From a virus: a stretch of DNA of 64,000 nt. The translations under genes were made by a program, and so were the position numbers. Numbering within the stretch: the stretch's first letter is position 1; every line of letters begins with the position of its first letter. Below, piece after piece: positions 1,156-44,897 of this stretch. The stretch spans positions 1 through 64,000 of IMG/VR virus record IMGVR_UViG_3300037258_001185, one strand, 5' to 3'. The notes under the pieces are model-generated. The model had not been told where the DNA came from and did not search any database. It saw nothing but the letters and a program-made list of their open reading frames with translations.

Positions 1156-1495
1156 GTTCGATTTCCCCCGGATTGGCGAGTTCATGAAGCACGTCGGCGT
1201 GGCACGGCCGGCCGATCGGGCACCAGCAGGCGAGGTCGTGGTCGCGCAATTCAGCAAGAAAGGCGGCAAGGCGTTCTGGCGACCAGGCGCTCAACCAGTC
1301 TCGGTACGCTTCAACCGCTTCCTTTGCGGTCTCGACCCTGAGGACGTTGTGAGTGCATTCCCCAGCCGACCGGCAGCCGCAGGCGACCAGGCCGACCCGA
1401 TACGGGTTTCCGCCGCGACTCGGGCGTCCGACATAGATCGCCCCCTCGGGCATGCGCCAGCCGGCCGCGCGCTTGCGCTGAATGCGCACCGGCAT
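1148..1495 (-). CDS. DUF4326 domain protein
   Basis: 115 aa. The family pattern is clear: an N-terminal PVRIQRKR block, YVGRPSRGGNPYRVG, and a C-terminal DLACWCP...PCHADVL block with conserved Cys/His. DUF4326 is common in phages but has no established biochemical role; the Cys/His cluster could bind metal (inference). The ATG at 1495 overlaps the TGA of the upstream 58-aa gene. Confidence 0.8.
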   Translation of the reverse strand: MPVRIQRKRAAGWRMPEGAIYVGRPSRGGNPYRVGLVACGCRSAGECTHNVLRVETAKEAVEAYRDWLSAWSPERLAAFLAELRDHDLACWCPIGRPCHADVLHELANPGEIEHA

Positions 1496-1671
1496 CAGAT
1501 CAGACCCTTTTCCTTGGCGAGCCATTCCGGCATCGCGAAGGTGCCGTCCGCCGGGTCGTGCTCAACCAGCGCCTTCGGCAGCCACACCTCTTGCGTGCCG
1601 TCGAAAATCAGCATGCCGCGGTCAGTCTCCCGCCGCAGCTCGCCCGCGATGTCGACCAGGTCGCTGCGCAT
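1495..1671 (-). CDS. Small hypothetical phage protein (58 aa)
   Basis: ATG at 1671; the stop TGA overlaps the ATG of the DUF4326 gene (TGATG). It ends in a MPEWLAKEKGLI-type tail that I associate with small alphaproteobacterial phage proteins. No signal peptide or recognised domain. Confidence 0.7.
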   Translation of the reverse strand: MRSDLVDIAGELRRETDRGMLIFDGTQEVWLPKALVEHDPADGTFAMPEWLAKEKGLI

Positions 1672-2159
1672 CAGACGGCCGCCAGAACGAACCGCCGGCC
1701 GGCGGCGTCGAGGCGATAGGCGATCTCGCCCGACCAGTCGTAGTAGGCGAGCGCATATTCGCCCGGCTTGTAATCCATCTGCTCGACAAGCTGCTCGACG
1801 CTGTCGGACATGGCGTCTGGGTCATGGTCGGCGCAAACATGAGTGGCGTCGCTGGGCATGTCGCGGCTCGTGCGATATTCGAGCGCGCCATCAACGGTGA
1901 GGATCGCGTTACCGTATTCGGTCAGCCGCAAAAACTTGACGATCTCGCCGTCGGCCAGGGCGCGCGCGTCCTCTTCATCCACAAACTCGCCGGCCAGCGC
2001 CGGCAGCCCGTTCGGCAGGGTGATCAGCCAGCCGTCCGGCATCGCGCGAGGCGTCGGCGACACCTCGTCGCAGTAGATGGCCGGCACATAGCCCTTGACG
2101 GTGCCACCGGCCGGTTCGTCGACGCCCGGCAGAAGGCTGAGCTGGACTGCGTCACTCAT
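1671..2159 (-). CDS. Hypothetical protein (162 aa)
   Basis: Acidic soluble protein, coupled by short overlaps to the genes on both sides (stop at 1671, start at 2159 next to the stop of the nuclease gene). It contains aromatic-rich stretches but no family that I recognise. Early-operon placement suggests a takeover or accessory role (inference). Confidence 0.65.
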   Translation of the reverse strand: MSDAVQLSLLPGVDEPAGGTVKGYVPAIYCDEVSPTPRAMPDGWLITLPNGLPALAGEFVDEEDARALADGEIVKFLRLTEYGNAILTVDGALEYRTSRDMPSDATHVCADHDPDAMSDSVEQLVEQMDYKPGEYALAYYDWSGEIAYRLDAAGRRFVLAAV

Positions 2160-2989
2160 TTCGAGCTCCTTCGCGCTTTCGGGAGATCAGGCGCCGCGGC
2201 CGGTTCGGGGATCGCCAATTCGCCGATCGCCTCGGCCACCCTGTCGTGCATCGCACGAAGCTGCTCGTGGAGTTGCCGAAGGCCGCCATACGAGCCAGCC
2301 ACCCCGGCCTTCATCACCACCTGGACGGCGTCAATCAGGGCGGCATCACGCCAGAAATGATCAGGCTGCTCGCCGATCGCTTCGACCAGTCCGCGCCAGT
2401 GCTGGGCCGCCAGCGTGTCACCCTCACGGCGGTTCTCGACGGCCTGGCGGACACGTTCCTCGAATTGCTTGTCCTGTACCTGCCGACGCGCCTGGAACAC
2501 GGCGTCGACCTCGTCCTGATCCAGCGGCCGGCCGGCGGCGCGCAGCATCGCCGCAAGGAACGGCCGGCCCACTGGCTCAGCCGGAGTCTTCTCCGCTCGC
2601 TTGGCGACGGCCGTTTTGCCTGCGCCATCGACCACGATCATGCCCCAAGCAGGGGGCAACTCCCCGACCGGCACGACGCCGGCCGGGGCCGCGATCCAGA
2701 AATAGTCGCAGAACCGGGCAATCTGTTCGGCCTTGGACGGGTTCGCCTTCTCGCGGCGCCAGTCGTAGAGGTTGACCTTGATCTCGATGCCGTGCAGCGA
2801 CAGGCCGCGGCTCGGCCATAAATCCATAGCCACAGCATCGAGGTGACGGTGCGCCTGTGTTCCCGTCGAGTGCGCCACCTCGAAGGCGATGGCGCACTCC
2901 GGCGCCGGGAAATGCCGGCGCAGCGCGGCCCGGACGTCGGGCGCCTTCATCACCTTCGGCGCGGCCGGCCGTTCGAGCAGGTCGCTCAT
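2156..2989 (-). CDS. MmcB-like PD-(D/E)XK nuclease family protein
   Basis: 277 aa. Residues about 15-130 follow the MmcB/DUF PD-(D/E)XK-like pattern: a conserved Asp in HLDAVAMDLWPS, then GIEIKV with the ExK pair, DWRREKANPSKAEQI, and a WIAAPAGV...PPAWGMIVVDG strand. The catalytic D-ExK residues look present. The C-terminal half is helical and charged. Probably a DNA-processing nuclease in the early operon. Confidence 0.65.
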   Translation of the reverse strand: MSDLLERPAAPKVMKAPDVRAALRRHFPAPECAIAFEVAHSTGTQAHRHLDAVAMDLWPSRGLSLHGIEIKVNLYDWRREKANPSKAEQIARFCDYFWIAAPAGVVPVGELPPAWGMIVVDGAGKTAVAKRAEKTPAEPVGRPFLAAMLRAAGRPLDQDEVDAVFQARRQVQDKQFEERVRQAVENRREGDTLAAQHWRGLVEAIGEQPDHFWRDAALIDAVQVVMKAGVAGSYGGLRQLHEQLRAMHDRVAEAIGELAIPEPAAAPDLPKARRSSK

Positions 2990-3375
2990 GCGGCGATCCG
3001 TTCAGGATAAAGGAGACCCTGCAGGTGCGCGGGCAGCCGCTCGAACGACTCGCGCATCTTGCCGTCCGGCGACCGGCTGACGAGCCCCGCAGCGATGCGC
3101 CACAGGTCGATGTGGTATTTGCGGCCGAAGGTCAGGACGCCGCGGTGCTGCTCGACATGATGATCGCGGCAGAGCGGAATGCCATACGCGGCGTGCGGCT
3201 TGTCGCTCTTGCCCGAATTGGCCGCCGTCCGCTGATGGGCGAACTCGACCGGCCCGCACCAGCATCCCGGAACGCAACAGCCCTGACTGCGCACGAACGC
3301 CTCGTGCACCGGGAACACCGTCCGCTCGATCTCGCGGACGCCCATGCGCTGCCGCTTTGGCGTCGCGCGCGGCAT
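2986..3375 (-). CDS. HNH-type nuclease-like protein (DUF968 type)
   Basis: 129 aa from the ATG at 3375. A zinc-finger HNH pattern is visible: CCVPGCWCGPVEFAHQR, then IPLCRDHHVEQHRG, giving paired Cys and His ligands with the AHQR and HHVEQH catalytic region. The family (DUF968/NinB-neighbour type) is common in early regions of temperate phages and is linked to recombination. The frame extends upstream of the chosen start over the DUF1643 gene and that part looks non-coding. Confidence 0.75.
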   Translation of the reverse strand: MPRATPKRQRMGVREIERTVFPVHEAFVRSQGCCVPGCWCGPVEFAHQRTAANSGKSDKPHAAYGIPLCRDHHVEQHRGVLTFGRKYHIDLWRIAAGLVSRSPDGKMRESFERLPAHLQGLLYPERIAA

Positions 3376-3920
3376 CACGAGATCCCCGCGGCGCGGGCGG
3401 CGCGCCAGTCGGCGGCGCAGATCCACCTGAACGGCTTCAGTCCGTAGGACAGGTAGAGCGGGTGCCCCGGCTGGCCGGCGGCCGTGAGCTTCAGCGCATA
3501 GAGGTCGTGCCCGAGGTCGGCCAGCAGGCCCACCACCTCTTGCCACCGCGGGCGCGCGTGGCCGTTGAGCAGGCCGTGGCTGCCCCAGCCGCACAGGACC
3601 ATCCCGGCGTCCGCGCACATGCGCACCAGGTAGCCGTCGGCGTCCGGGCCGAGCGGATCGTCGACGCGCAACAGCCCTGCCGGGTCGGTCGACCGCAGGG
3701 TGAAGATGTTGCCGACGCGGAGGCCGCCGAAGCCCATCTGCTCGGCGCGCATCCGACAGCGGTAAACCGTCGGGTCGTCCTGCACGGCGTCGGCGGTCGA
3801 CGGGTTGAGCAGCACTACGACGAGCGGCGGCGCGTCCGACCAGCGCCGCCATAGCAGGCCGCGGTAGCGCCCGCAGGGCGAGAACTCGGCGCCGGAGTCG
3901 AGAAACAGGTCCACGCTCAT
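3375..3920 (-). CDS. DUF1643 domain protein
   Basis: 181 aa. The diagnostic DUF1643 motifs are present in order: YRGLLWRRW, VVLLNPSTADA near residue 40, DDPTVYRCRMRA, GLRVGNIFTLRSTDP, a GPDAD block and a C-terminal GHPLYL. Biochemical role unknown. The ATG overlaps the end of the upstream 247-aa gene. Confidence 0.85.
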   Translation of the reverse strand: MSVDLFLDSGAEFSPCGRYRGLLWRRWSDAPPLVVVLLNPSTADAVQDDPTVYRCRMRAEQMGFGGLRVGNIFTLRSTDPAGLLRVDDPLGPDADGYLVRMCADAGMVLCGWGSHGLLNGHARPRWQEVVGLLADLGHDLYALKLTAAGQPGHPLYLSYGLKPFRWICAADWRAARAAGIS

Positions 3921-6559: not shown

Positions 6560-7147
6560 CTACTCCAATTGCGGCGCCACGCGCCGCATGTTCGGGCCGT
6601 CCGACGGGCCGCTGAAATGGACGGTCACCGATGCGGCCTCACGGGCCGCGCGCATTGCGCGAAGGCGCGCCGTAACCCCGTCTGGACCCTCAGGGCCATA
6701 GCGCCCTGTGCTATCGAGCAGCACGGCCCGCGGGTTGCGCCCGAGGCGCAGCCCGAACATCAGCGTGTCCCACGCCTCGCGGTGGTCGGAGCGAAAGAAC
6801 GGAAGGGGCGCGGCCCATATCGCAAAATCGTGCTGCGGACCGCGCAGCGCGGCGGGATCGTCGACGCTATAGATCTCGGAGACGGCGCCGGTCGGCCAAG
6901 AAAGGCGCGCGCGCGGCCAGTCCACCGCGGGGAGCGAAGGTGAGAAATGCCACATGAAGGCCAGATCGCCCGTCACACGATCAGCGGTGGTCACCAGGGC
7001 GATGCGTTTGCGCTCGTCGGCGATGGCCGCAAGCATGAGATCGTGAAGCGCAAGCCGACGCGGGCGCGCGACCCGCACAATGTCGATCTGGAGGCCGACA
7101 TTGTTCTCGGCGAGCCAAGAGGCGACACGGGAGGTTGGATCGGTCAT
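6560..7147 (-). CDS. Terminase large-subunit-like protein without ATPase motifs
   Basis: 195 aa. It aligns by eye with the ATPase domain of this phage's own TerL (49495-50922): KRIALV at 47-52, SWPTGA at 83-88, LRGPQHDF at 101-108, and EAWDTLMFGLRLGRNPR at 124-140, the last matching TerL at 15 of 17 positions. The Walker A P-loop region is missing, and the Walker B acidic pair of TerL (WCDE) reads IWAA here. The nuclease domain is absent. The gene is intact and coupled on its start (ATGA) to the IS110-like gene, so it is not obvious debris. A non-enzymatic role such as packaging modulation or interference is inference. Confidence 0.7.
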   Translation of the reverse strand: MTDPTSRVASWLAENNVGLQIDIVRVARPRRLALHDLMLAAIADERKRIALVTTADRVTGDLAFMWHFSPSLPAVDWPRARLSWPTGAVSEIYSVDDPAALRGPQHDFAIWAAPLPFFRSDHREAWDTLMFGLRLGRNPRAVLLDSTGRYGPEGPDGVTARLRAMRAAREAASVTVHFSGPSDGPNMRRVAPQLE

Positions 7148-8454
7148 CCGGCGTCTCCTTGCGGATTGCGATGATCCCCGAGAGCGGCGGCAGGATTACG
7201 ATGGCCTTGCGGCACTCCGGGGCTGGCCGCCACGCTCGGGGATGGGGTCAGAAGGGCATCGGCACCGGTACAATGGCCTTGCGGCAGGAACTCCTTGGCC
7301 TTTGCTCTCCTGGTGGGCTTGGCGCGGACGCCGGTCATCACGGACATGGCGGTGTCCGCGCCGATCAGGGCCGAAGCGGAGTCGGCATAGGCAGTCGGGC
7401 CTTTCGGCAACCTTCGGACGGCGTTCTCCGCTTCGGTTTGGTTCGGGGCGCCGGCGGCAACGGTCGCATGGCCTTGCGGCATCAACCAATCGGCCTCCGG
7501 CGCCCCGATCTCTTGTGCCGCGACCTCGGCGTGCCAGACACGCCACAGGTCGCGCAATACGCGCTTGGCCATGAGGCGCCGGGCGGCCATGTCGGCGTGC
7601 GCCGGCGTCCATTTGTCGGGGTTCTTCTTGCCGCCGAGCTCGGCCGGCAGGTCCGCCGTGGCGGCGACGCGCAGCGTGTACCGCGCCTTCGCCCGCCCAT
7701 AGACCTCGCCATAGGGGCCGATCGCGTGCGCCTCGGCAACAATGCCGAACGGCTCGGCGAGTTCCCTCAACTCCTCTATCTTCTTGACTTGCTTCAGGTC
7801 GATGTCGCGGCGCTGGATTTCCGCAGCGGCGGCCGGGTCATCCTCCAGCGCCTTACGGTAAGCGCCGACCTCACTGCACCATTGCTGCCTCAGCATGGCA
7901 TCATAGATGCCGACATAGATGGCGGAACGCCGCCACTTGTGCATCTGGCGTACCGCCGTCTCGTTCTCTCCCGCGCCCGCGAACCCCAGACCGAGCCGCT
8001 TCCACATTTTCGAATGGGAGGGGAAATCGGACAGACCCCGGTCCTGCGCGCCGTGGCAATGCGCCACGATCACGGCAAACGTCAGATCGCCAAACCCATT
8101 GACGGACCTGACCCAGGCGTAGGCCGGCAACTGCGGCGCCAGCCGCTCCATTTGCCGCTCGATCTTTTTCCTCTCCTTTTCGAACAGGGCGACCGCCACC
8201 AATGCGGCCATGACCGCGCCGCGCCAGGCCCCGGCCGTGTTCTCGGCGCCCTCGGCATCTGCCTTGACCGCAGCGACGATCTGACGGGCGCGTGCCGCGA
8301 TCTTCTCGCTTTCGGCTTTCGACAGGTCGCTGCGCCACCCGAGGGCGCTGCGAAGTTGTCCTCCCATGCGATTTGAAATCGCCGTCGTTTGACTGACGAG
8401 GCCGGCCCTGACCCGATTGAGTCCGGCCAAGGCCTGCACCGCGTCGCTCAGCAT
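7144..8454 (-). CDS. IS110-type Transposase_20-like protein lacking the RuvC-like domain, with palindrome-encoded C-terminal repeats
   Basis: 436 aa. After an N-terminal helical region (1-105), residues about 108-180 match the IS110/IS116 C-terminal transposase pattern: VRSVNGFGDLTFAVIVAH, FPSHSKMWKRLGLG, and MHKWRRSAIYVGIYDAM, with a later ADMAARRLMAKRVLRDLW helix. The N-terminal DEDD (RuvC-like) domain of IS110 transposases is absent, and the usual Ser-Gly-Gly stretch after the LGL motif reads GAGEN. The last 110 residues contain four repeats beginning xPxGx, each from one palindromic DNA element. Probably a domesticated transposase relative used in phage recombination (inference). Confidence 0.65.
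   Translation of the reverse strand: MLSDAVQALAGLNRVRAGLVSQTTAISNRMGGQLRSALGWRSDLSKAESEKIAARARQIVAAVKADAEGAENTAGAWRGAVMAALVAVALFEKERKKIERQMERLAPQLPAYAWVRSVNGFGDLTFAVIVAHCHGAQDRGLSDFPSHSKMWKRLGLGFAGAGENETAVRQMHKWRRSAIYVGIYDAMLRQQWCSEVGAYRKALEDDPAAAAEIQRRDIDLKQVKKIEELRELAEPFGIVAEAHAIGPYGEVYGRAKARYTLRVAATADLPAELGGKKNPDKWTPAHADMAARRLMAKRVLRDLWRVWHAEVAAQEIGAPEADWLMPQGHATVAAGAPNQTEAENAVRRLPKGPTAYADSASALIGADTAMSVMTGVRAKPTRRAKAKEFLPQGHCTGADALLTPSPSVAASPGVPQGHRNPAAALGDHRNPQGDAG
7174..7243. repeat. In-gene palindromic element, copy 1
   Basis: Arms 7174-7190 and 7227-7243 pair at 14 of 17 positions. The core ATGGCCTTGCGGCA lies at 7201-7214. On the minus strand it encodes VPQGHRNPA near the end of the IS110-like protein. 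Confidence 0.75.
7262..7300. repeat. In-gene palindromic element, copy 2 (core only)
   Basis: Same 14-base core at 7273-7286 (ATGGCCTTGCGGCA), encoding LPQGHCTGAD on the minus strand. I could not find complementary arms, so this copy has probably decayed. Outer limits are approximate. Confidence 0.55.
7371..7436. repeat. In-gene palindromic element, copy 3
   Basis: Perfect 11-base arms CCGAAGCGGAG (7371-7381) and CTCCGCTTCGG (7426-7436) around the core GGCCTTTCGGCA at 7398-7409, encoding LPKGPTAYAD on the minus strand. Confidence 0.8.
7444..7507. repeat. In-gene palindromic element, copy 4
   Basis: Arms 7444-7458 and 7493-7507 pair at 14 of 15 positions; core ATGGCCTTGCGGCA at 7468-7481, encoding MPQGHATVAA. 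It starts 7 bases after copy 3. Confidence 0.8.
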
Positions 8455-33878: not shown

Positions 33879-33933
33879 ATAATACCACAACCACGGTATC
33901 GGTCAACATAAAAGCGCGTAATGTGCGCTTTAT
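33879..33933 (-). promoter_or_regulatory. Leftward promoter module A with AAAAGCGC palindrome
   Basis: On the minus strand: palindrome 33908-33933 (GCGC arms with A/T flanks), then -35 TTGACC (33901-33906), 16-base spacer, -10 TATTAT (33879-33884). Same layout as modules B, C and D. The palindrome includes the stop codon of the XRE gene upstream and could both end that transcript and control this promoter. Confidence 0.78.
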
Positions 33934-35529: not shown

Positions 35530-37824
35530 TCAATTCCCCATGATGGCGGTGACGAGGGCGCAGGCCGTATTGACGGGCACCGCGTTGCCGATCTGCTTGG
35601 TGATCTCGGTCTTCGTCCCGACGAACTCGTATTCGATCTCTCCTTCGCTGAAGCCCATCGCCCTGGCCAACTCCTTCGGATCGAGCATGCGGAAGCGGAT
35701 GTCATAGCGGCGCTCGCCGGCGGCGCCCTCGACCAGTTGCACGCGGCCGGCGGCGCAGATCGTCGGCGCCGGGTCGTCGATGCTGTGCACGCGCGGCGCC
35801 TGCCCTGGCCGCTCGCCAAAGGCGGCGGCGATGAAGGCCAGCTCGCCGCGCGGCGCGGCGGTGATCGTCGGCAGCGGATCATCTGGCGAGCGGACGCGGC
35901 CCTTGTCGCCGCCGTGCGTGACCGGCATGACCAGCGCGAACTCGCCGCCCTTGGCCGTCGTCATGGTCGGCAGCGGGTCGTCGATCGCGCGCGGGCCCGG
36001 GCCGCCGGTGCTGTTCGTGACCGGGACGACGAGGCCGAAGCGTGCCTTGGTCGTGACGGTCGGCAACGGCGTCTCGGTCGAGCCGCAGGTCTCGCCCGAG
36101 CCCGAGCCGTAATAAGGGGCGATGAGGGCGTGGGCGCCGCCGTGGCCGCCCGTAGTGATCGTTGGGACCGGCTGATCAACGCTGCGCGGCGCGCCGCAAG
36201 AGGCTTGCGAAAGCACGAACGGCTGGACCACGGCGATTTGCGATTTCGTGGTCAGCGCCGGGACTGGATCGCCGATCGCCGATGGCACATTGCCATCGCG
36301 CATTGCCGAGACGAACGGCTCGACGATGCCGAACTTCCCTCCTCCGGCGTGGATGGTCTGCAGCGGGTCGTCCAGGCTGCGGCACCGCCGGCTATCGGGA
36401 TCGCGCTCATGCGCTGGGTTGCCATGCGCCAAGGTCGCGATAAACGGCTCGACGACCAGCGGCTCGCAGAGAAACTGGCCGCCGCCGGTTGTCGTGGTGA
36501 TCCCGCCGACCGGATCATCGACGCTCTTCGGCGTGTTGTTGGTCCGGTTGCCGCAGACGAACGGATCGAGGCGCCATTCCTCGCCGCAGCGCGGGCATTC
36601 TGGCGACGACAAGCCTCCTGGCTCACTTCCGGCGTACCTATCGGTGAACATCTCGCCGCAGGCCTGACAACGCCATGCGGTCGTCGGCTCCACCATATAG
36701 CCGGCGCCGCGGCAGTCAGCCGTCGGCATCGGCTCGTCGAGCGGATGCGCACGGGTCGCGCCGTTGTCGCCATGCCGGTTCAGGATGAACGGCTCGACGA
36801 CGGCCGGCCGCGCGCACCCGGGGCGCCGCTCATTCGAGGCTCCCCCCGTGGTAATCGTCATCAACGGGTCTTCGACCGAGCGCGCCGCACCGCTGCTGCT
36901 GTTCGACAGCGTGAACGGCATGGGCACAGCCAGCGCGATATGCGTGCCGCCGGCGCAGATCGCCGGGACCGGCTCGTCGATGCTTTGCGCGTCCATGTGG
37001 TTACGCAGGATGACGAGGAACGGATCAGGCCACTTGAATTTGACGGCGCCGGCGTAGATCCGCGCCAGCGTCTTCGGGCTGAGCGGCCGCTTGCGGTCGA
37101 AGATCGACTTGCCGGAGAGCGACCAGTCGATGATTTCTCGGGCCGCACGCCATTTCTCGGTCGCATGGCCGAGCAGGTCGCCGACGGCGCCCTTGCGGCT
37201 GTGGGTCGGCGTCGGCCAGACGATGCGTTTGCCGTCCGACCGCGCCATCAGGAAGAAACGCTCGCGGGTCGTCGCGTCGCCAAAGTCGGCAGCGTTCAGG
37301 ACGCGCCACTCAACCTTGAACCCGGCGCCGCGCAGCGCGTTGACCCAGGCGAGGAAATACTCGCCCTCATGGCGCTTTGACGGCCGGCCAGTGCGCAGGT
37401 TGACCCTCCCCCAGCGCACAAATTCCGGGACGTTCTCGACGATCAGTCGCTTGATCCTGAGCTCGGTGCACCAGTGGATGATCGCCCACGGGTCCATGCG
37501 CTGCTGGTCGTTGATCGGCTTGCCGCCGCGGGCGCGCGAGTGATAGGTGCAGCTCGGGCTCGCCATCAGCAGGTCGAGCTTGCCCTCGGGGACCAGTTCG
37601 ATCGGCTTGGCGACATTGACGTCCTGGCAATAGTGACGCGCCTCCGGGTGATTGCGGCTGTGGGATTCAATGGCGAGCGGCCAATGGTTGACGGCACAAA
37701 GGTCCATCCGGTAGCCAAGGCCGAGCAGAGCCCGGCGCGCGCCGGTCGAACTGCCGCCAGCTCCGCAAAACAGATCGGCGACTAGCGCGGTGCGGGTCGG
37801 GGCCGGGAGCGTGTCATGCGGCAT
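35530..37824 (-). CDS. C5-cytosine DNA methyltransferase with long repeat array
   Basis: 764 aa. Motif I LFCGAGGSSTGA near residue 20, catalytic motif MASPSCTYHSRARGG near 90-103, motif VI VENVPEF, and C-terminal motif X QIGNAVPVNTA. Between them (about 270-715) lie eleven repeats of the type (I/V/L)DDP(L/V)PTITT, spaced about 35-40 residues, plus a CQACG...CPRCG zinc ribbon near 405-435. The array sits where target recognition domains are expected. Confidence 0.88.
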   Translation of the reverse strand: MPHDTLPAPTRTALVADLFCGAGGSSTGARRALLGLGYRMDLCAVNHWPLAIESHSRNHPEARHYCQDVNVAKPIELVPEGKLDLLMASPSCTYHSRARGGKPINDQQRMDPWAIIHWCTELRIKRLIVENVPEFVRWGRVNLRTGRPSKRHEGEYFLAWVNALRGAGFKVEWRVLNAADFGDATTRERFFLMARSDGKRIVWPTPTHSRKGAVGDLLGHATEKWRAAREIIDWSLSGKSIFDRKRPLSPKTLARIYAGAVKFKWPDPFLVILRNHMDAQSIDEPVPAICAGGTHIALAVPMPFTLSNSSSGAARSVEDPLMTITTGGASNERRPGCARPAVVEPFILNRHGDNGATRAHPLDEPMPTADCRGAGYMVEPTTAWRCQACGEMFTDRYAGSEPGGLSSPECPRCGEEWRLDPFVCGNRTNNTPKSVDDPVGGITTTTGGGQFLCEPLVVEPFIATLAHGNPAHERDPDSRRCRSLDDPLQTIHAGGGKFGIVEPFVSAMRDGNVPSAIGDPVPALTTKSQIAVVQPFVLSQASCGAPRSVDQPVPTITTGGHGGAHALIAPYYGSGSGETCGSTETPLPTVTTKARFGLVVPVTNSTGGPGPRAIDDPLPTMTTAKGGEFALVMPVTHGGDKGRVRSPDDPLPTITAAPRGELAFIAAAFGERPGQAPRVHSIDDPAPTICAAGRVQLVEGAAGERRYDIRFRMLDPKELARAMGFSEGEIEYEFVGTKTEITKQIGNAVPVNTACALVTAIMGN

Positions 37825-38685: not shown

Positions 38686-38743
38686 ACAATAACATATTGC
38701 GGGTTCCCGTCAACAAAAAGCGCACTATACGCGCTTTTTGTTG
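38686..38743 (-). promoter_or_regulatory. Leftward promoter module B with perfect palindrome
   Basis: Perfect 13-bp arms CAACAAAAAGCGC (38711-38723) and its complement (38731-38743). On the minus strand -35 TTGACG (38708-38713), 16-base spacer, -10 TATTGT (38686-38691). Predicted to drive the leftward genes from 38646 down to the methyltransferases. Confidence 0.8.
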
Positions 38744-39262
38744 CTGGCTCTGCGGCCTTGCCAGGGCGCTCGGCCCGTGGCATAAGGAGCGACTCCTTGG
38801 AAGGGAGTCGGCGCCTTAAGCAAGCGCCATCGGGCTCCCCGGCTCGGCTCAACACGGGACCGGGGCCTCGGCGGGCCGAGGATTGGCAGAGACGGGCGCG
38901 TTCGCGCGACGCCCCAAGCCTTCCTCGGCCCCGCCCGATCATCTCCGAATAAAGTTGAGGCGATTTCTCTTCGCGTTCCGGGAATCATCCCGGACACTGT
39001 GAAAATTCTCAATCGAGAACTCCGAGTGGGCAGGGGAGGACGCCATGCGCGCGATCTGATTCCTGAGCCGGCGGCAACCGATGAATCCGGGCGCTCTCTG
39101 GATCGCCAAGGTGCGGTCCAAGATGTCAGGTGGAGGGCGCCGCCGGGGCAAGCGCTTGGTGCCTAATGCCAGCGCCTCGAACGCCGGATGGATTCCAGGC
39201 GTGACGGCCGCCAGAGGCGGCGCTCCATGCTACGTCGACTTCACGCCAGCGGAGTAAACGCG
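38744..39262. other. Non-coding, hairpin-rich region
   Basis: About 520 bp without a convincing gene. It holds several hairpins: CGACTCC with GGAGTCG (38790-38810), a GGCGC/GCGCC pair just after, CCTCGG/CCGAGG near 38870, and CCGGGA-atca-TCCCGG (38978-38993), then the 16-bp leader motif at 39001. It could encode a structured RNA or a leader of the sigma-factor operon; neither is proven. Confidence 0.5.
39001..39016 (+). promoter_or_regulatory. Shared 16-bp leader motif, copy 1
   Basis: GAAAATTCTCAATCGA, identical to 48988-49003. Downstream both copies also share a CTGATT and a GCCGGCGGCA-like stretch. Lies about 250 bp upstream of the operon starting at 39263. Candidate late promoter or leader signal. 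Confidence 0.6.
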
Positions 39263-39592
39263 ATGGACAACCTGTTCGAAGGTGAGCCGGACGCCCGGCA
39301 GACTGACGCGCCGGTGACGGCGCCGCAGCATTCGCTGTTCCGCAAGCGCTACCGCAAGTTGACGGAACCCGAGGTCGCGCTGCAGGACGCCATCAAGGAC
39401 AAGGCCGATGAGCTCGCGGTGCTGATCGGCCTCCTCAATCCGGCCACCGCCAATCGGCTCGGCGTCCATTCCGTGACGACCGGATGCTCGCTTGCGATTG
39501 AGCTGGGCGACCGCGATCCCGCGAACGTGACGCTGGCCATTCGCCACCTTGAGGACGCCGTCTATCGCGCCGTCAAAGCACTGACTGCATAG
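39263..39592 (+). CDS. Acb2/Tad1-like protein (candidate anti-CBASS/anti-Thoeris sponge)
   Basis: 109 aa from the ATG at 39263 (GGAG upstream). After a 25-residue tail, residues 29-58 (RYRKLTEPEVALQDAIKDKA and on) and 88-109 (NVTLAIRHLEDAVYRAVKAL) match the two-helix pattern of the Acb2/Tad1 hairpin domain, including Tyr30 and Lys45/47 in the places where Acb2 uses Tyr and Lys to hold cyclic nucleotides. It has about 25 extra residues between the helices compared with compact Acb2. Acb2 soaks up cyclic nucleotide signals; activity here is inference. Confidence 0.65.
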   Translation: MDNLFEGEPDARQTDAPVTAPQHSLFRKRYRKLTEPEVALQDAIKDKADELAVLIGLLNPATANRLGVHSVTTGCSLAIELGDRDPANVTLAIRHLEDAVYRAVKALTA

Positions 39593-39601
39593 GCGACGCC
39601 A

Positions 39602-40081
39602 ATGTCGGGGGCGCGAGCGTTCGCAGATGCCGAGCTGATCGAGCACCTGCCGCGCTTGCGCCGCTACGCGCTGGCGCTGACGAGAGACGGCGATCGAGCC
39701 GACGACCTGGTGCAGGACACGATCATGCGCGCGCTCGACAAGCATGAGCTATGGCGGCCCGGCAGCAGCCTGCGCGCATGGCTTTTCACGCTCTTACACA
39801 ACACCTACGTCAACCAGATCAGGGCCATCAAAAGGCGCCCCGAGACGGTCGAGTTGACCGAGACGAACGGCGGTTCCCGGCCGGCGGCGGCCGAAGGGCT
39901 GCTATTCGCGAACGATCTCGCCTCGATCATTTCGGGCCTCGATATCAGCACGCGCCGGCTGCTGGCGCTGATCTCCGACGGTCACTCCTACGAGGCGGTA
40001 GCCGGCATGCTCGACGTTCCGACCGGAACTGTCCGATCGCGCCTCTCTCGCGTCCGCGCCATGCTTTCGGGGGCCGCATGA
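39602..40081 (+). CDS. ECF-like sigma factor
   Basis: 159 aa. Region 2: LRRYALALTRDGDRADDLVQ, then SSLRAWLFTLLHNTYVNQIR. Region 4: STRRLLALISDGHSYEAVAG, MLDVPTGTVRSRLSRVR. Complete two-domain sigma-70 ECF layout with no anti-sigma partner next door. Could redirect host RNA polymerase to phage promoters; the motif at 39001/48988 is a candidate target (inference). Confidence 0.85.
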   Translation: MSGARAFADAELIEHLPRLRRYALALTRDGDRADDLVQDTIMRALDKHELWRPGSSLRAWLFTLLHNTYVNQIRAIKRRPETVELTETNGGSRPAAAEGLLFANDLASIISGLDISTRRLLALISDGHSYEAVAGMLDVPTGTVRSRLSRVRAMLSGAA

Positions 40082-40857
40082 ATCTTGGTGACAAGCCTGA
40101 GTTGCGGTGGCTCCCCGTCGACTGCCTGTCGGTCGACAACCGCTATCAGCGAACGCTCAACACCCGCGCCGGCAGGAAGCTCGTCGCCGAGATCGTCGCG
40201 AATTTCGCATGGTCCGCCTTCCAGGCGATCCTCGCGACGCCAGCCGGAGCCGGTTGGCTGATCGTTGATGGACAGCATCGCGTTGAGGCGGCTCGCCAGT
40301 TGGGTATCGCGGAGGTGCCGGCCGTTGTCGTCACCTCGGTCAGCGTCGTCGAGCAGGCCCTGGCCTTCGTGACCGCAAACAAACAGCGCGTCGCCGTCAA
40401 CAACTACGCGCTGCATCACGCGGCCGTGGTCGGCGGCGATCCGCTTGCGACCGAGGTCGACCGGGTGTGCCGCGAGGCCGGCGTCTCGGTGCCCCGCTAT
40501 CCCATACCGGAGATCAACCTTGTGCCGGGCCAGACGCTCGCGCTCAGCACAATCACCAGCCTCGTCAAAAATGACGCGGCGCTTGCGACTCTAACGCTGC
40601 GCTGTCTCGCCGAAGCCTACCGCCGCACTAAGGGAGCGCTCCGCGCGCCGACGATCGCCGCCGCGGCTCTGGTGCTGGAAAGGCGCCCAAAGCCAGACCG
40701 GCCGGCCTCGGCCGGCATCATCACCAGTTTTCTCAGCCAGCGCACCTCAGCCGATCTGGCTATCGAGGCCCTGAAGCATCGCGGTAAGTACGGGGGCACG
40801 ATGAAGGAAGCCATCGCCGGCATGCTGCGCCGCCGCGTCGAGGCGCCGCGCCGGTGA
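40078..40857 (+). CDS. ParB/Srx-fold nuclease-domain protein
   Basis: 259 aa, ATGA overlap with the sigma factor gene. N-terminal ParB-type domain: ELRWLPVDCLSVDNRYQR, and WLIVDGQHRVEAARQLG (the GQHR motif). The C-terminal part is helical. Proteins of this type in phages are DNA-binding or NTP-dependent; a partition role is unlikely without ParA. Confidence 0.75.
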   Translation: MNLGDKPELRWLPVDCLSVDNRYQRTLNTRAGRKLVAEIVANFAWSAFQAILATPAGAGWLIVDGQHRVEAARQLGIAEVPAVVVTSVSVVEQALAFVTANKQRVAVNNYALHHAAVVGGDPLATEVDRVCREAGVSVPRYPIPEINLVPGQTLALSTITSLVKNDAALATLTLRCLAEAYRRTKGALRAPTIAAAALVLERRPKPDRPASAGIITSFLSQRTSADLAIEALKHRGKYGGTMKEAIAGMLRRRVEAPRR

Positions 40858-41138
40858 GCGCCTTCATCGTCGCCACCGCGGCCGACAAGCTGCGCGCCTT
40901 CGACGACCTCGATCCCGCACTGCGCGAACTGATCGATTACGGACCCTTCAATCCGGACAGCGTCTTCATCATGCGCCAGATGCAGAGCGACCTTGGCGTG
41001 GCCGAAACGGCGCGTCGGATGCGCGCGCAGATCGCCGAGACGCCGGAGACCTGGGCCGCGAACACCGCGCACGCCTGGAAACCCGAGCGAGGCAGTCCGC
41101 TCGCCGGCAGGGCGCCCAATCGGAGGAACGCCGCATGA
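40854..41138 (+). CDS. Hypothetical protein (94 aa)
   Basis: GTG start overlapping the ParB-like stop. Helical, with LRELIDYGPFNPDSVFIMRQ. No family assigned. Confidence 0.6.
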   Translation: MSAFIVATAADKLRAFDDLDPALRELIDYGPFNPDSVFIMRQMQSDLGVAETARRMRAQIAETPETWAANTAHAWKPERGSPLAGRAPNRRNAA

Positions 41139-41626
41139 GCACGGGCCTTTGGGGATTCCCGGCCAGCGGTCAGAAGGGTCGCTGGACCGCTCTCGTCGAG
41201 CCGATGGTGTCGCGCGCGACACGCTTCCACACCCTGAAACGCTCCCACGCGAGCGACGGAACGGCTGTCATGCGCCGCGTCGGCGAGGGACCGACCGCGC
41301 AAAACGTCATAGAGGCGGTGCGCGAATACGAGATCCGCTTCGAGCTCGTCCAAATCGAGGAAGGGGGGCCCTTAAGCGAGCCGACGATCGTCGGGAGGTC
41401 GCACGATGGCCTCAGCCTCAACGGCACCGACGACGTACGCGATTTCCTCCAGGCGATCGTCGACTGCGCCGCTCAGATGGGGATCGAGGCAACCGAGGCG
41501 GCCAAGCTCGACCTGACCGGCGAACTCGACGCCACCCTCAACCACCTCGACGACATGCGCCGCCTCGCCATGGGCGATAAATACGCCGGCCAGGTGCGGA
41601 AAACGCCTAAGGAACGCCGAGGATGA
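41135..41626 (+). CDS. Hypothetical protein (163 aa)
   Basis: ATGA overlaps at both ends. N-terminus with Trp and basic residues; centre EAVREYEIRFELVQIEE; C-terminus helical. No domain recognised. Confidence 0.6.
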   Translation: MSTGLWGFPASGQKGRWTALVEPMVSRATRFHTLKRSHASDGTAVMRRVGEGPTAQNVIEAVREYEIRFELVQIEEGGPLSEPTIVGRSHDGLSLNGTDDVRDFLQAIVDCAAQMGIEATEAAKLDLTGELDATLNHLDDMRRLAMGDKYAGQVRKTPKERRG

Positions 41627-41826
41627 CGGCAAAAGGTCTCCCTGCGCAGCTCGCCGACATCGACGGCGAGGCGGAACCCGATCCTGACATCGGGGGCGCG
41701 ACGGTGACCCACGACCCCATGCAGAGCCGCCAGACCGGAATGAGCGACCTGCTCGACGCCACCCTCAACTGCTCTCAGATCGTCATACTCGACGGCGAGA
41801 CCGACAGGGGGGCGCACAAGGAATGA
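41623..41826 (+). CDS. Small acidic hypothetical protein (67 aa)
   Basis: Acidic, low-complexity, no membrane segment. Supported by tight coupling and coding context. Confidence 0.5.
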   Translation: MTAKGLPAQLADIDGEAEPDPDIGGATVTHDPMQSRQTGMSDLLDATLNCSQIVILDGETDRGAHKE

Positions 41827-42409: not shown

Positions 42410-42574
42410 ATGGCCTGGTTTCTCCTGGCGATTTTGGTCCTCCGTGGCTTCGGGCTGCTGGTCGAAGGCGTCGGGAAAAACCTGGTCGCCGAGCGCGCCG
42501 CGGCTTTGATTGGCGCGGCATGCTTCGGCGCCTGCGCCGGATGGCTCTACTTCGCAAGCGGGCTGTTCGCATGA
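42410..42574 (+). CDS. Small membrane protein (54 aa)
   Basis: Two hydrophobic segments (WFLLAILVLRGFGLLV and ALIGAACFGACAGWLYFA) with a short charged loop. ATGA overlap with the next gene supports it. Confidence 0.55.
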   Translation: MAWFLLAILVLRGFGLLVEGVGKNLVAERAAALIGAACFGACAGWLYFASGLFA

Positions 42575-43176
42575 GGGGCGCCGACCTGATCGTGCCGCGC
42601 TCAACCACCGCGCTGATCCCCTACGTCGGGAACAGCCGGACGCACAGCCCGGAGCAGGTGCAGCAGATCGCGGGCTCGATCCGCGAATTCGGCTTCACCA
42701 ATCCGGTGCTGATCGACCAGGACAACGGCATCATCGCCGGGCACGGCCGCGTCCTGGCCGCTCAGTTGCTTGGCCTGTCTGAAGTGCCCTGCATCGTGCT
42801 CAGCCACCTCTCGCCGGCGCAGCGGCGCGCCTACGTCATCGCCGACAACAAGCTGGCGCTCAACGCCGGCTGGGACGAGAAAATGCTCGCCCTCGAGCTC
42901 GACGAGCTGAAGGCGGGCGGCTTCGACCTCGACCTCACCGGGTTCGGCGAGGTCGAGCGCGCCGATCTGGAGTTGCGGCTGAATGATCCTGCGCCGTCGG
43001 GCGGCAATGACGCGCCGCCCGACGCGGAGCCGATGGAGTTGCGCTGGGGCAATACCCGGCTGCCGATCACGGCGACCGAGAAACTGGCGCTGACCGGCCG
43101 GCTCGATCAGCACTTGAAGGATTTCGGCGCGCCCTACGGCTTCGTTCGGGAAGGGCTGGGGCTCGGCGCCGAATAG
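42571..43176 (+). CDS. ParB N-terminal domain protein (201 aa)
   Basis: Domain signature in order: LIPYVGNSRTHSPEQVQQIA, SIREFGFTNPVLIDQDNGII, AGHGRVLAAQLLGL, VIADNKLALNAGWD. The family often precedes DNA methyltransferase domains in phage proteins; this copy is stand-alone. It is a paralogue of the protein at 46137-46736. Confidence 0.88.
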   Translation: MRGADLIVPRSTTALIPYVGNSRTHSPEQVQQIAGSIREFGFTNPVLIDQDNGIIAGHGRVLAAQLLGLSEVPCIVLSHLSPAQRRAYVIADNKLALNAGWDEKMLALELDELKAGGFDLDLTGFGEVERADLELRLNDPAPSGGNDAPPDAEPMELRWGNTRLPITATEKLALTGRLDQHLKDFGAPYGFVREGLGLGAE

Positions 43177-43506: not shown

Positions 43507-43566
43507 ATAATAACACAACCCGCTAATCGATCAACATAAAAGCGCGTTATACGCGCTTTTATGTTG
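43507..43566 (-). promoter_or_regulatory. Leftward promoter module C with perfect palindrome
   Basis: Perfect 14-bp arms CAACATAAAAGCGC (43532-43545) and its complement (43553-43566). On the minus strand -35 TTGATC (43529-43534), 16-base spacer, -10 TATTAT (43507-43512). The palindrome contains the stop codon of the upstream gene (43559-43561). Confidence 0.82.
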
Positions 43567-44843: not shown

Positions 44844-44897
44844 ATAATAACATATCCGGCAAACTCGTCAACAAAAAGCGCGCTATGCGCGCCTTTT
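44844..44897 (-). promoter_or_regulatory. Leftward promoter module D with palindrome
   Basis: Palindrome AAAAAGCGCGC/GCGCGCcTTTTT (44873-44897). On the minus strand -35 TTGACG (44866-44871), 16-base spacer, -10 TATTAT (44844-44849). Drives the six-gene leftward operon ending at 43559. Confidence 0.8.

What the first reader, a model, noticed from the sequence alone, without database searches (positions are those of the whole stretch)
39263..39592. Acb2/Tad1-like candidate anti-defence protein
The 109-aa protein has the helix pattern of cyclic-nucleotide sponges that block CBASS and Thoeris, with Tyr and Lys at matching places and about 25 extra residues between helices. It is the first gene of the sigma-factor operon.
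Basis: partly seen in the sequence, partly recalled or inferred. Interest (0 to 1): 0.75.

Follow-up and report, generated by a model that had tools for sequence, protein, structure and literature searches.

The report
Phage Acb2-family nucleotide sponge candidate
This small phage gene belongs by sequence to a known family of proteins that soak up bacterial alarm molecules, and a close relative is fused to a second kind of alarm-molecule-binding domain, so it is probably a counter-defence gene, although its target is untested.

Summary
The 109-aa ORF 39263-39592 is a coding gene and a member of Pfam PF24729 (Acb2_Tad1_hairpin): 41.9 bits against a cut-off of 27, E=1.1e-10. Tyr30 and Lys45 occupy the places of the Tyr and Lys of known Acb2. 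One detail needs correcting. The '25 extra residues' are extra only against the Pfam consensus and an 81-aa sister clade; solved Acb2 proteins have the same inter-helix spacing (50 and 47 residues, here 51). Two other positions differ: the Thr whose change weakens T4 Acb2 is Arg94, and an Acb2 Arg is Ala87. I therefore file it in the hairpin family, not as Acb2 proper. It lacks Tad1's N-terminal sheet. Function is inferred, not shown. The best new support is association. One of the closest relatives is fused to a RyR domain that keeps the ligand residues of RyDEP, an anti-Thoeris family. In 80 RyR-selected viral contigs, 14 carry a hairpin and 9 of these lie within 1 kb of RyR (1.5 expected, p<1e-6). 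The window phage has no RyR match. Verdict: a probable nucleotide sponge, a new member of a known kind; the recurrent RyR-hairpin pairing is the more novel by-product.

The parts
39263..39592 (+). 109-aa Acb2/Tad1-hairpin protein, candidate nucleotide sponge
   Evidence: Pfam PF24729 41.9 bits, cut-off 27; hhalign to solved Acb2; dN/dS
39251..39254 (+). GGAG, probable ribosome-binding site 8 nt before the ATG
   Evidence: sequence
39350..39352 (+). codon of Tyr30, equivalent of T4 Acb2 Y8 and PaP2 Y11
   Evidence: Y8A abolishes T4 Acb2 activity in PMC12657218
39395..39397 (+). codon of Lys45, equivalent of PaP2 K26 and T4 K23
39542..39544 (+). codon of Arg94, at the position of T4 Acb2 Thr68 and PaP2 Thr74
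   Evidence: T68M lowers T4 Acb2 affinity in PMC12657230
39602..40081 (+). ECF-type sigma factor, next gene in the putative operon
   Evidence: PF22029 PhyR_sigma2 69 bits, PF04542, PF08281
40078..40857 (+). ParB-like protein, overlapping the sigma gene
   Evidence: phrog_1033 E=3.6e-12
40854..41826 (+). three overlapping small ORFs without family matches, rest of the putative operon

Best explanation
The gene encodes a phage counter-defence sponge of the Acb2/Tad1-hairpin family. Shown: family membership, conserved Tyr30 and Lys45, two predicted antiparallel helices, purifying selection, an accessory gene pattern in relatives, and a fused or adjacent RyR (RyDEP-type) domain in relatives. Inferred: like Acb2 it assembles into an oligomer whose inter-protomer pockets stack a cyclic nucleotide on Tyr30 and bind its phosphates with Lys45, so that a CBASS or Thoeris effector is not switched on. 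Inferred: because the T68-equivalent is Arg94 and the PaP2 R67-equivalent is Ala87 in all three members of its branch, its ligand preference differs from T4 or PaP2 Acb2, probably with a lost or altered cyclic-trinucleotide site. Inferred: the subfamily's conserved N-terminal D10-x-R12-Q13 stretch, absent from Acb2, may help cover the pocket.
For: PF24729 over cut-off. A profile of 33 relatives matches solved PaP2 Acb2 with prob 90, E=1.7e-6. The top nine PDB chains by Foldseek are 7uq2, 8h2x and 8h2j, best prob 0.97 though E is 0.24 or worse; the best VIA Z is 6.4 to 7uq2. Tyr and Lys are conserved. Related viral loci share almost no neighbour gene: apart from the gene itself and frames overlapping it, the most widely shared cluster reaches 10 of 41 loci, and their settings range from recombination to head-tail genes, as for an accessory gene. 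One of the closest relatives is the C-terminus of a 493-aa protein with a RyR domain that keeps H75, W78, H100 and D117 of RyDEP (PMC13232231). Hairpin and RyR genes are linked in other contigs: 9 of 14 co-occurrences within 1 kb, 1.5 expected, p<1e-6, with a second fusion in L104.
Against: No nucleotide-binding data. T68- and R67-equivalents are changed. T4 F82, which stacks on the ligand (PMC12657218), has no counterpart at the short C-terminus. The structural matches alone are not significant and helical hairpins are common. The window phage has no RyR match, and its operon partners (sigma factor, ParB-like) are not known counter-defence genes. Host and its defence systems are unknown.
Confidence: 0.72

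Rival explanations
1. It is a hairpin-family protein whose nucleotide-binding ability is lost or repurposed, for example as a regulator or binding partner of the sigma factor encoded next to it.
For: It is the first gene before an ECF sigma factor, 9 nt apart. Two ligand-site positions are changed. Pfam membership alone does not prove binding.
Against: The relatives' neighbours that were annotated are varied and include no sigma factor. Tyr30 and Lys45 are kept. No sigma-containing relative locus was found in viral contigs, so conservation of the pair cannot be tested.
Confidence: 0.15
2. It is a virion-morphogenesis or packaging accessory protein, since some relatives lie in head-tail modules.
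For: Sinorhizobium phage Aussie gp37 lies between head-tail adaptor and stopper genes; L053 follows a head-tail adaptor; L006 precedes what look like packaging genes.
Against: Other relatives lie beside Erf/integrase, exonuclease and replication genes; the window gene lies in a sigma/ParB-like operon. A structural part would keep its neighbours. Accessory genes are often inserted in structural modules.
Confidence: 0.08
3. A narrower version of the best explanation: the ligand is an ADP-ribose-type Thoeris signal rather than a CBASS cyclic oligonucleotide.
For: A close relative is fused to a RyR domain with all four RyDEP ligand residues, and hairpins recur beside RyR genes. Tad1, same Pfam hairpin, binds gcADPR (PMC12043709).
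Against: A fused partner may widen the range to other signals instead of repeating the same one; sequence matches Acb2 and the N-terminal sheet of Tad1 is missing.
Confidence: 0.3

Closest known systems
Acb2 (Pseudomonas phage PaP2, PDB 8h2j/8h2x; T4 Vs.4, PDB 7uq2)
   Same: PF24729 hairpin; Tyr and Lys 15 residues apart; inter-helix spacing 51 against 50 and 47; small single-domain phage protein; best PDB matches of the model
   Different: about 20 more N-terminal residues with a conserved DxRQ motif; Arg94 in place of Thr68/Thr74; Ala87 in place of PaP2 Arg67; shorter C-terminus without T4 F82; ligand and oligomer untested
Tad1 (Thoeris anti-defence 1)
   Same: same Pfam hairpin domain
   Different: Tad1 has an N-terminal beta-sheet before the two helices (PMC12043709); the window protein has 29 mostly unstructured residues there
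81-aa hairpin clade of phages (40 viral contigs, e.g. L017-L055)
   Same: same N-terminal YEGxPDxRQ stretch, FRPRYRxL, HDxIK; about 41-53% identity in the alignment
   Different: short inter-helix turn (26 instead of 51 residues), keeps the GR and Thr positions of Acb2, MW in helix 2
RyDEP (phage RyR-domain proteins, PMC13232231)
   Same: RyR domain is fused to the hairpin in relative L001 and in L104, and adjacent in several contigs; H75, W78, H100, D117 kept in L001
   Different: the window protein has no RyR domain and no RyR match was found in the window phage

Membership tests
Pfam PF24729 Acb2_Tad1_hairpin | profile score over the curated cut-off | tested here: met
   41.9 bits against 27, E=1.1e-10
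Pfam PF24729 Acb2_Tad1_hairpin | two long antiparallel helices | tested here: met
   AF2 helices 35-56 and 86-108, pLDDT about 90 in the helices; Foldseek best nine chains are Acb2/Vs.4
Acb2 proper | ligand-stacking Tyr (T4 Y8) and Lys (PaP2 K26) at the pocket | tested here: met
   Y30 and K45 align and are at least 90% conserved; importance of Y8 from PMC12657218; K26 role from my own knowledge
Acb2 proper | Thr at T4 position 68 (T68M lowers affinity) | tested here: not met
   Arg94 in the window, L006 and L001; Thr in PaP2 and in the 81-aa clade. Affinity residue rather than a formal definition, but it stops me filing this as Acb2 proper
Acb2 proper | Arg67 of PaP2 (cyclic-trinucleotide site, from my own knowledge) | tested here: not met
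   Ala87 by counting back from the helix-2 alignment; the loop itself is gapped there, so the register is less sure than in the helix; kept as GR in the 81-aa clade
Acb2 proper | hexamer with cyclic nucleotides bound between protomers | not testable with these tools
   only monomers could be predicted; no binding assay
Tad1 | N-terminal antiparallel beta-sheet before the two helices | tested here: not met
   29 residues precede Tyr30, mostly coil and low confidence in the model
Tad1 | binds gcADPR and blocks Thoeris | not testable with these tools
   needs a binding assay and phage plating

The most novel reading that the evidence does not exclude
Acb2-type hairpins and RyR (RyDEP-type) domains form a recurrent counter-defence module in phages, as neighbouring genes or one fused protein, that removes several immune signals together; the window protein is a free-standing member of the sub-branch that also occurs fused, with a pocket retuned (Thr to Arg) towards ADP-ribose-type signals.
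Probability: 0.3. Interest if true: 0.7.

Novelty: new member of a known kind. Interest (0 to 1): 0.45.

Why it matters
Sponges help decide which phages survive CBASS and Thoeris, and their presence can trigger guard systems such as Panoptes (PMC12657218). This branch is divergent at positions that affect affinity, so it is a direct test of how few changes retune ligand choice. The linkage of hairpin and RyR genes points to a simple rule for finding counter-defence islands and to natural two-domain signal removers; the 2026 RyDEP preprint does not mention Acb2 or Tad1 in its main text, and no held phage paper contains both Acb2 and RyR.

Tried and rejected
PADLOC and NCBIfam gave nothing, as did plasmids and GTDB genomes with a sequence-pattern scan; the last finds only close relatives. 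phmmer against PDB with the single window sequence gave only chance hits, and a profile of the 33 relatives reached Acb2 only at E=0.08. No Tad1 chain appeared in the PDB fold search, which does not exclude kinship. The BFVD fold search gave low-significance matches, several named Acb2/Tad1 hairpin. The sigma factor was used to look for syntenic relatives in viral contigs: none. Key papers on Acb2 pocket residues were not held, so R67 and K26 roles are from my own knowledge.

Full report
What was claimed.

Observation. The ORF is there, with GGAG 8 nt before the ATG; homologues begin at the same Met. Pairwise dN/dS of 0.33-0.41 against L006, L001 and L018, and mostly about 0.05-0.1 within the sister clade, show a translated, constrained gene. 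Pfam PF24729, Acb2_Tad1_hairpin, matches residues 30-108 with 41.9 bits against a curated cut-off of 27, E=1.1e-10. The record is an 84,251-bp IMG/VR virus with one such gene. The protein ends 9 nt before an ECF sigma factor (PF22029, PF04542, PF08281), followed by overlapping ORFs including a ParB-like protein, so an operon is likely though transcription was not tested.

Relatives. Direct relatives are few: L006 (58% identity over the alignment), L001 (65%), and the 81-aa protein of L008. The L008 protein opens a clade of 40 viral contigs with a conserved start, YEGxPDxRQ. Isolated phages with hairpin members include Sinorhizobium phage Aussie gp37 and Microbacterium phage ISF9; a putative Acb2 has also been reported in Microbacterium phage Statler (PMC13348362). 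PF24729 finds T4 Vs.4, ISF9, L006, L008 and L001, all over cut-off.

Comparison with solved Acb2. phmmer with T4 Vs.4 printed the PaP2 Acb2 chain (PDB 8h2j), so positions can be compared. hhalign of the 33-member alignment with PaP2 Acb2 gives prob 90, E=1.7e-6; with T4 Vs.4 it aligns helix 2 only, prob 32. Tyr30 aligns with PaP2 Y11 and T4 Y8, Lys45 with K26 and K23, each pair 15 apart. T4 Y8A abolishes Acb2 function in Panoptes assays (PMC12657218; PMC12657230). From the Lys to the first helix-2 Leu/Ile the distance is 51 in the window, 50 in PaP2, 47 in T4, 26 in the 81-aa clade and 37 in L001, counted on the sequences. The 'insertion' therefore gives the length of true Acb2, and linker length varies within the family. 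Arg94 stands where T4 has Thr68 (T68M lowers affinity, PMC12657230) and PaP2 Thr74; Ala87 stands at PaP2 Arg67. All three members of the window branch share these changes, while the 81-aa clade keeps Arg and Thr. This suggests changed ligand choice; it is inference.

Structure. AlphaFold2 gives mean pLDDT 75.6 with helices 35-56 and 86-108 near or above 90. Foldseek's nine best PDB chains are 7uq2, 8h2x and 8h2j, but E-values are 0.24 to 2.9; VIA-align gives Z 6.4 to 7uq2, not clear of unrelated hairpins. The fold is consistent, not proof. Oligomers could not be modelled.

Accessory character. Among 41 relative loci, apart from the gene itself and frames overlapping it, no neighbour ORF cluster is shared by more than 10 loci. 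Neighbours range over Erf/integrase, exonuclease, replication, internal virion and head-tail genes. A free-moving accessory gene fits better than a structural part.

Link to RyR. The L001 relative is the C-terminal domain of a 493-aa ORF with a RyR domain (PF02026, E=1e-10; hairpin E=1.4e-7). The Met of the free-standing proteins is a CTG there, and a second, degenerate RyR-like repeat lies between (phrog_5154 E=2.9e-4 on residues 202-387; alignment). A 2026 preprint shows that phage RyR-domain proteins (RyDEP) cleave or sequester 2'cADPR and 3'cADPR and overcome Thoeris (PMC13232231). The L001 RyR domain keeps H75, W78, H100 and D117, and its model matches RyR structures. A scan with a RyR alignment returned 80 viral loci, chosen without regard to hairpins, though the L001 locus was the lead sequence of that alignment. 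PF24729 is over cut-off in 14 of the 80 contigs. Nine of the 14 lie within 1 kb of the RyR match, against 1.5 expected if placed at random; no run of one million simulations reached nine. L001 itself is one of the nine and prompted the test, and two of the nine (L103, L110) look like the same locus, so 7 of 12 is the fairest count. Six gaps are under 100 nt. L104 is a second fusion, 201 aa, both domains over cut-off; L083 has the hairpin gene 12 nt before the RyR gene. The 1-kb limit was chosen after seeing the data; the 100-nt limit gives 6 against 0.5 (p=2e-6). The window phage has no RyR match.

Reading. Membership of the hairpin family is shown. That the protein is a sponge is inferred from family, conserved Tyr and Lys, gene behaviour and the RyR link. 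Which signal it takes is open. I do not file it as Acb2 proper because affinity positions differ, nor as Tad1 because the N-terminal sheet is missing.

Limits. No binding or plating data; host unknown; the alignment of helix 2 rests on sequence; the fold matches are weak alone; roles of K26 and R67 are from my own knowledge because the primary papers were not held.

Noticed in passing
L001:6810-8291: 493-aa fusion: RyR domain with all four RyDEP ligand residues, a degenerate RyR-like repeat, then an Acb2-type hairpin, in a 259-kb virus contig.
   Followed up: yes
L104:144-746: 201-aa RyR-hairpin fusion, both Pfam domains over cut-off.
   Followed up: partly
L076, L083, L084, L088, L103/L110, L109 (around 1400-3450): Hairpin genes beside RyR genes, gaps 34-878 nt: recurrent linkage in phage contigs.
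   Followed up: partly
L037:5409-5738: Weak RyR-like ORF (24 bits, below the 27.4 cut-off) about 2.2 kb downstream of an 81-aa hairpin gene.
   Followed up: no
window 33911-33931, 38717-38737, 43539-43559, 44875-44895: Four copies of a palindrome AAAGCGCGTTATACGCGCTTT (up to 3 mismatches, 0.01 matches expected by chance); three share flanks, and the 38717 copy lies beside a minus-strand promoter-like site; possible operators of minus-strand gene blocks.
   Followed up: partly
window 39602-40081: Phage ECF sigma factor closest to PhyR_sigma2 (general stress response type of alphaproteobacteria, from my own knowledge); distant relatives in Rhizobium and Sinorhizobium phages.
   Followed up: partly
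window 7144-8454 (-): Transposase-like integration protein (phrog_4285 E=1.7e-14), suggesting a transposable temperate phage.
   Followed up: no
window 35530-37824 (-): 764-aa ORF with a C-5 cytosine methylase domain at its start and a long repetitive remainder.
   Followed up: no
window 42520-43176 (+): Second ParB-like protein, similar to the N-terminal part of phage DNA methyltransferases (phrog_620, phrog_498).
   Followed up: no
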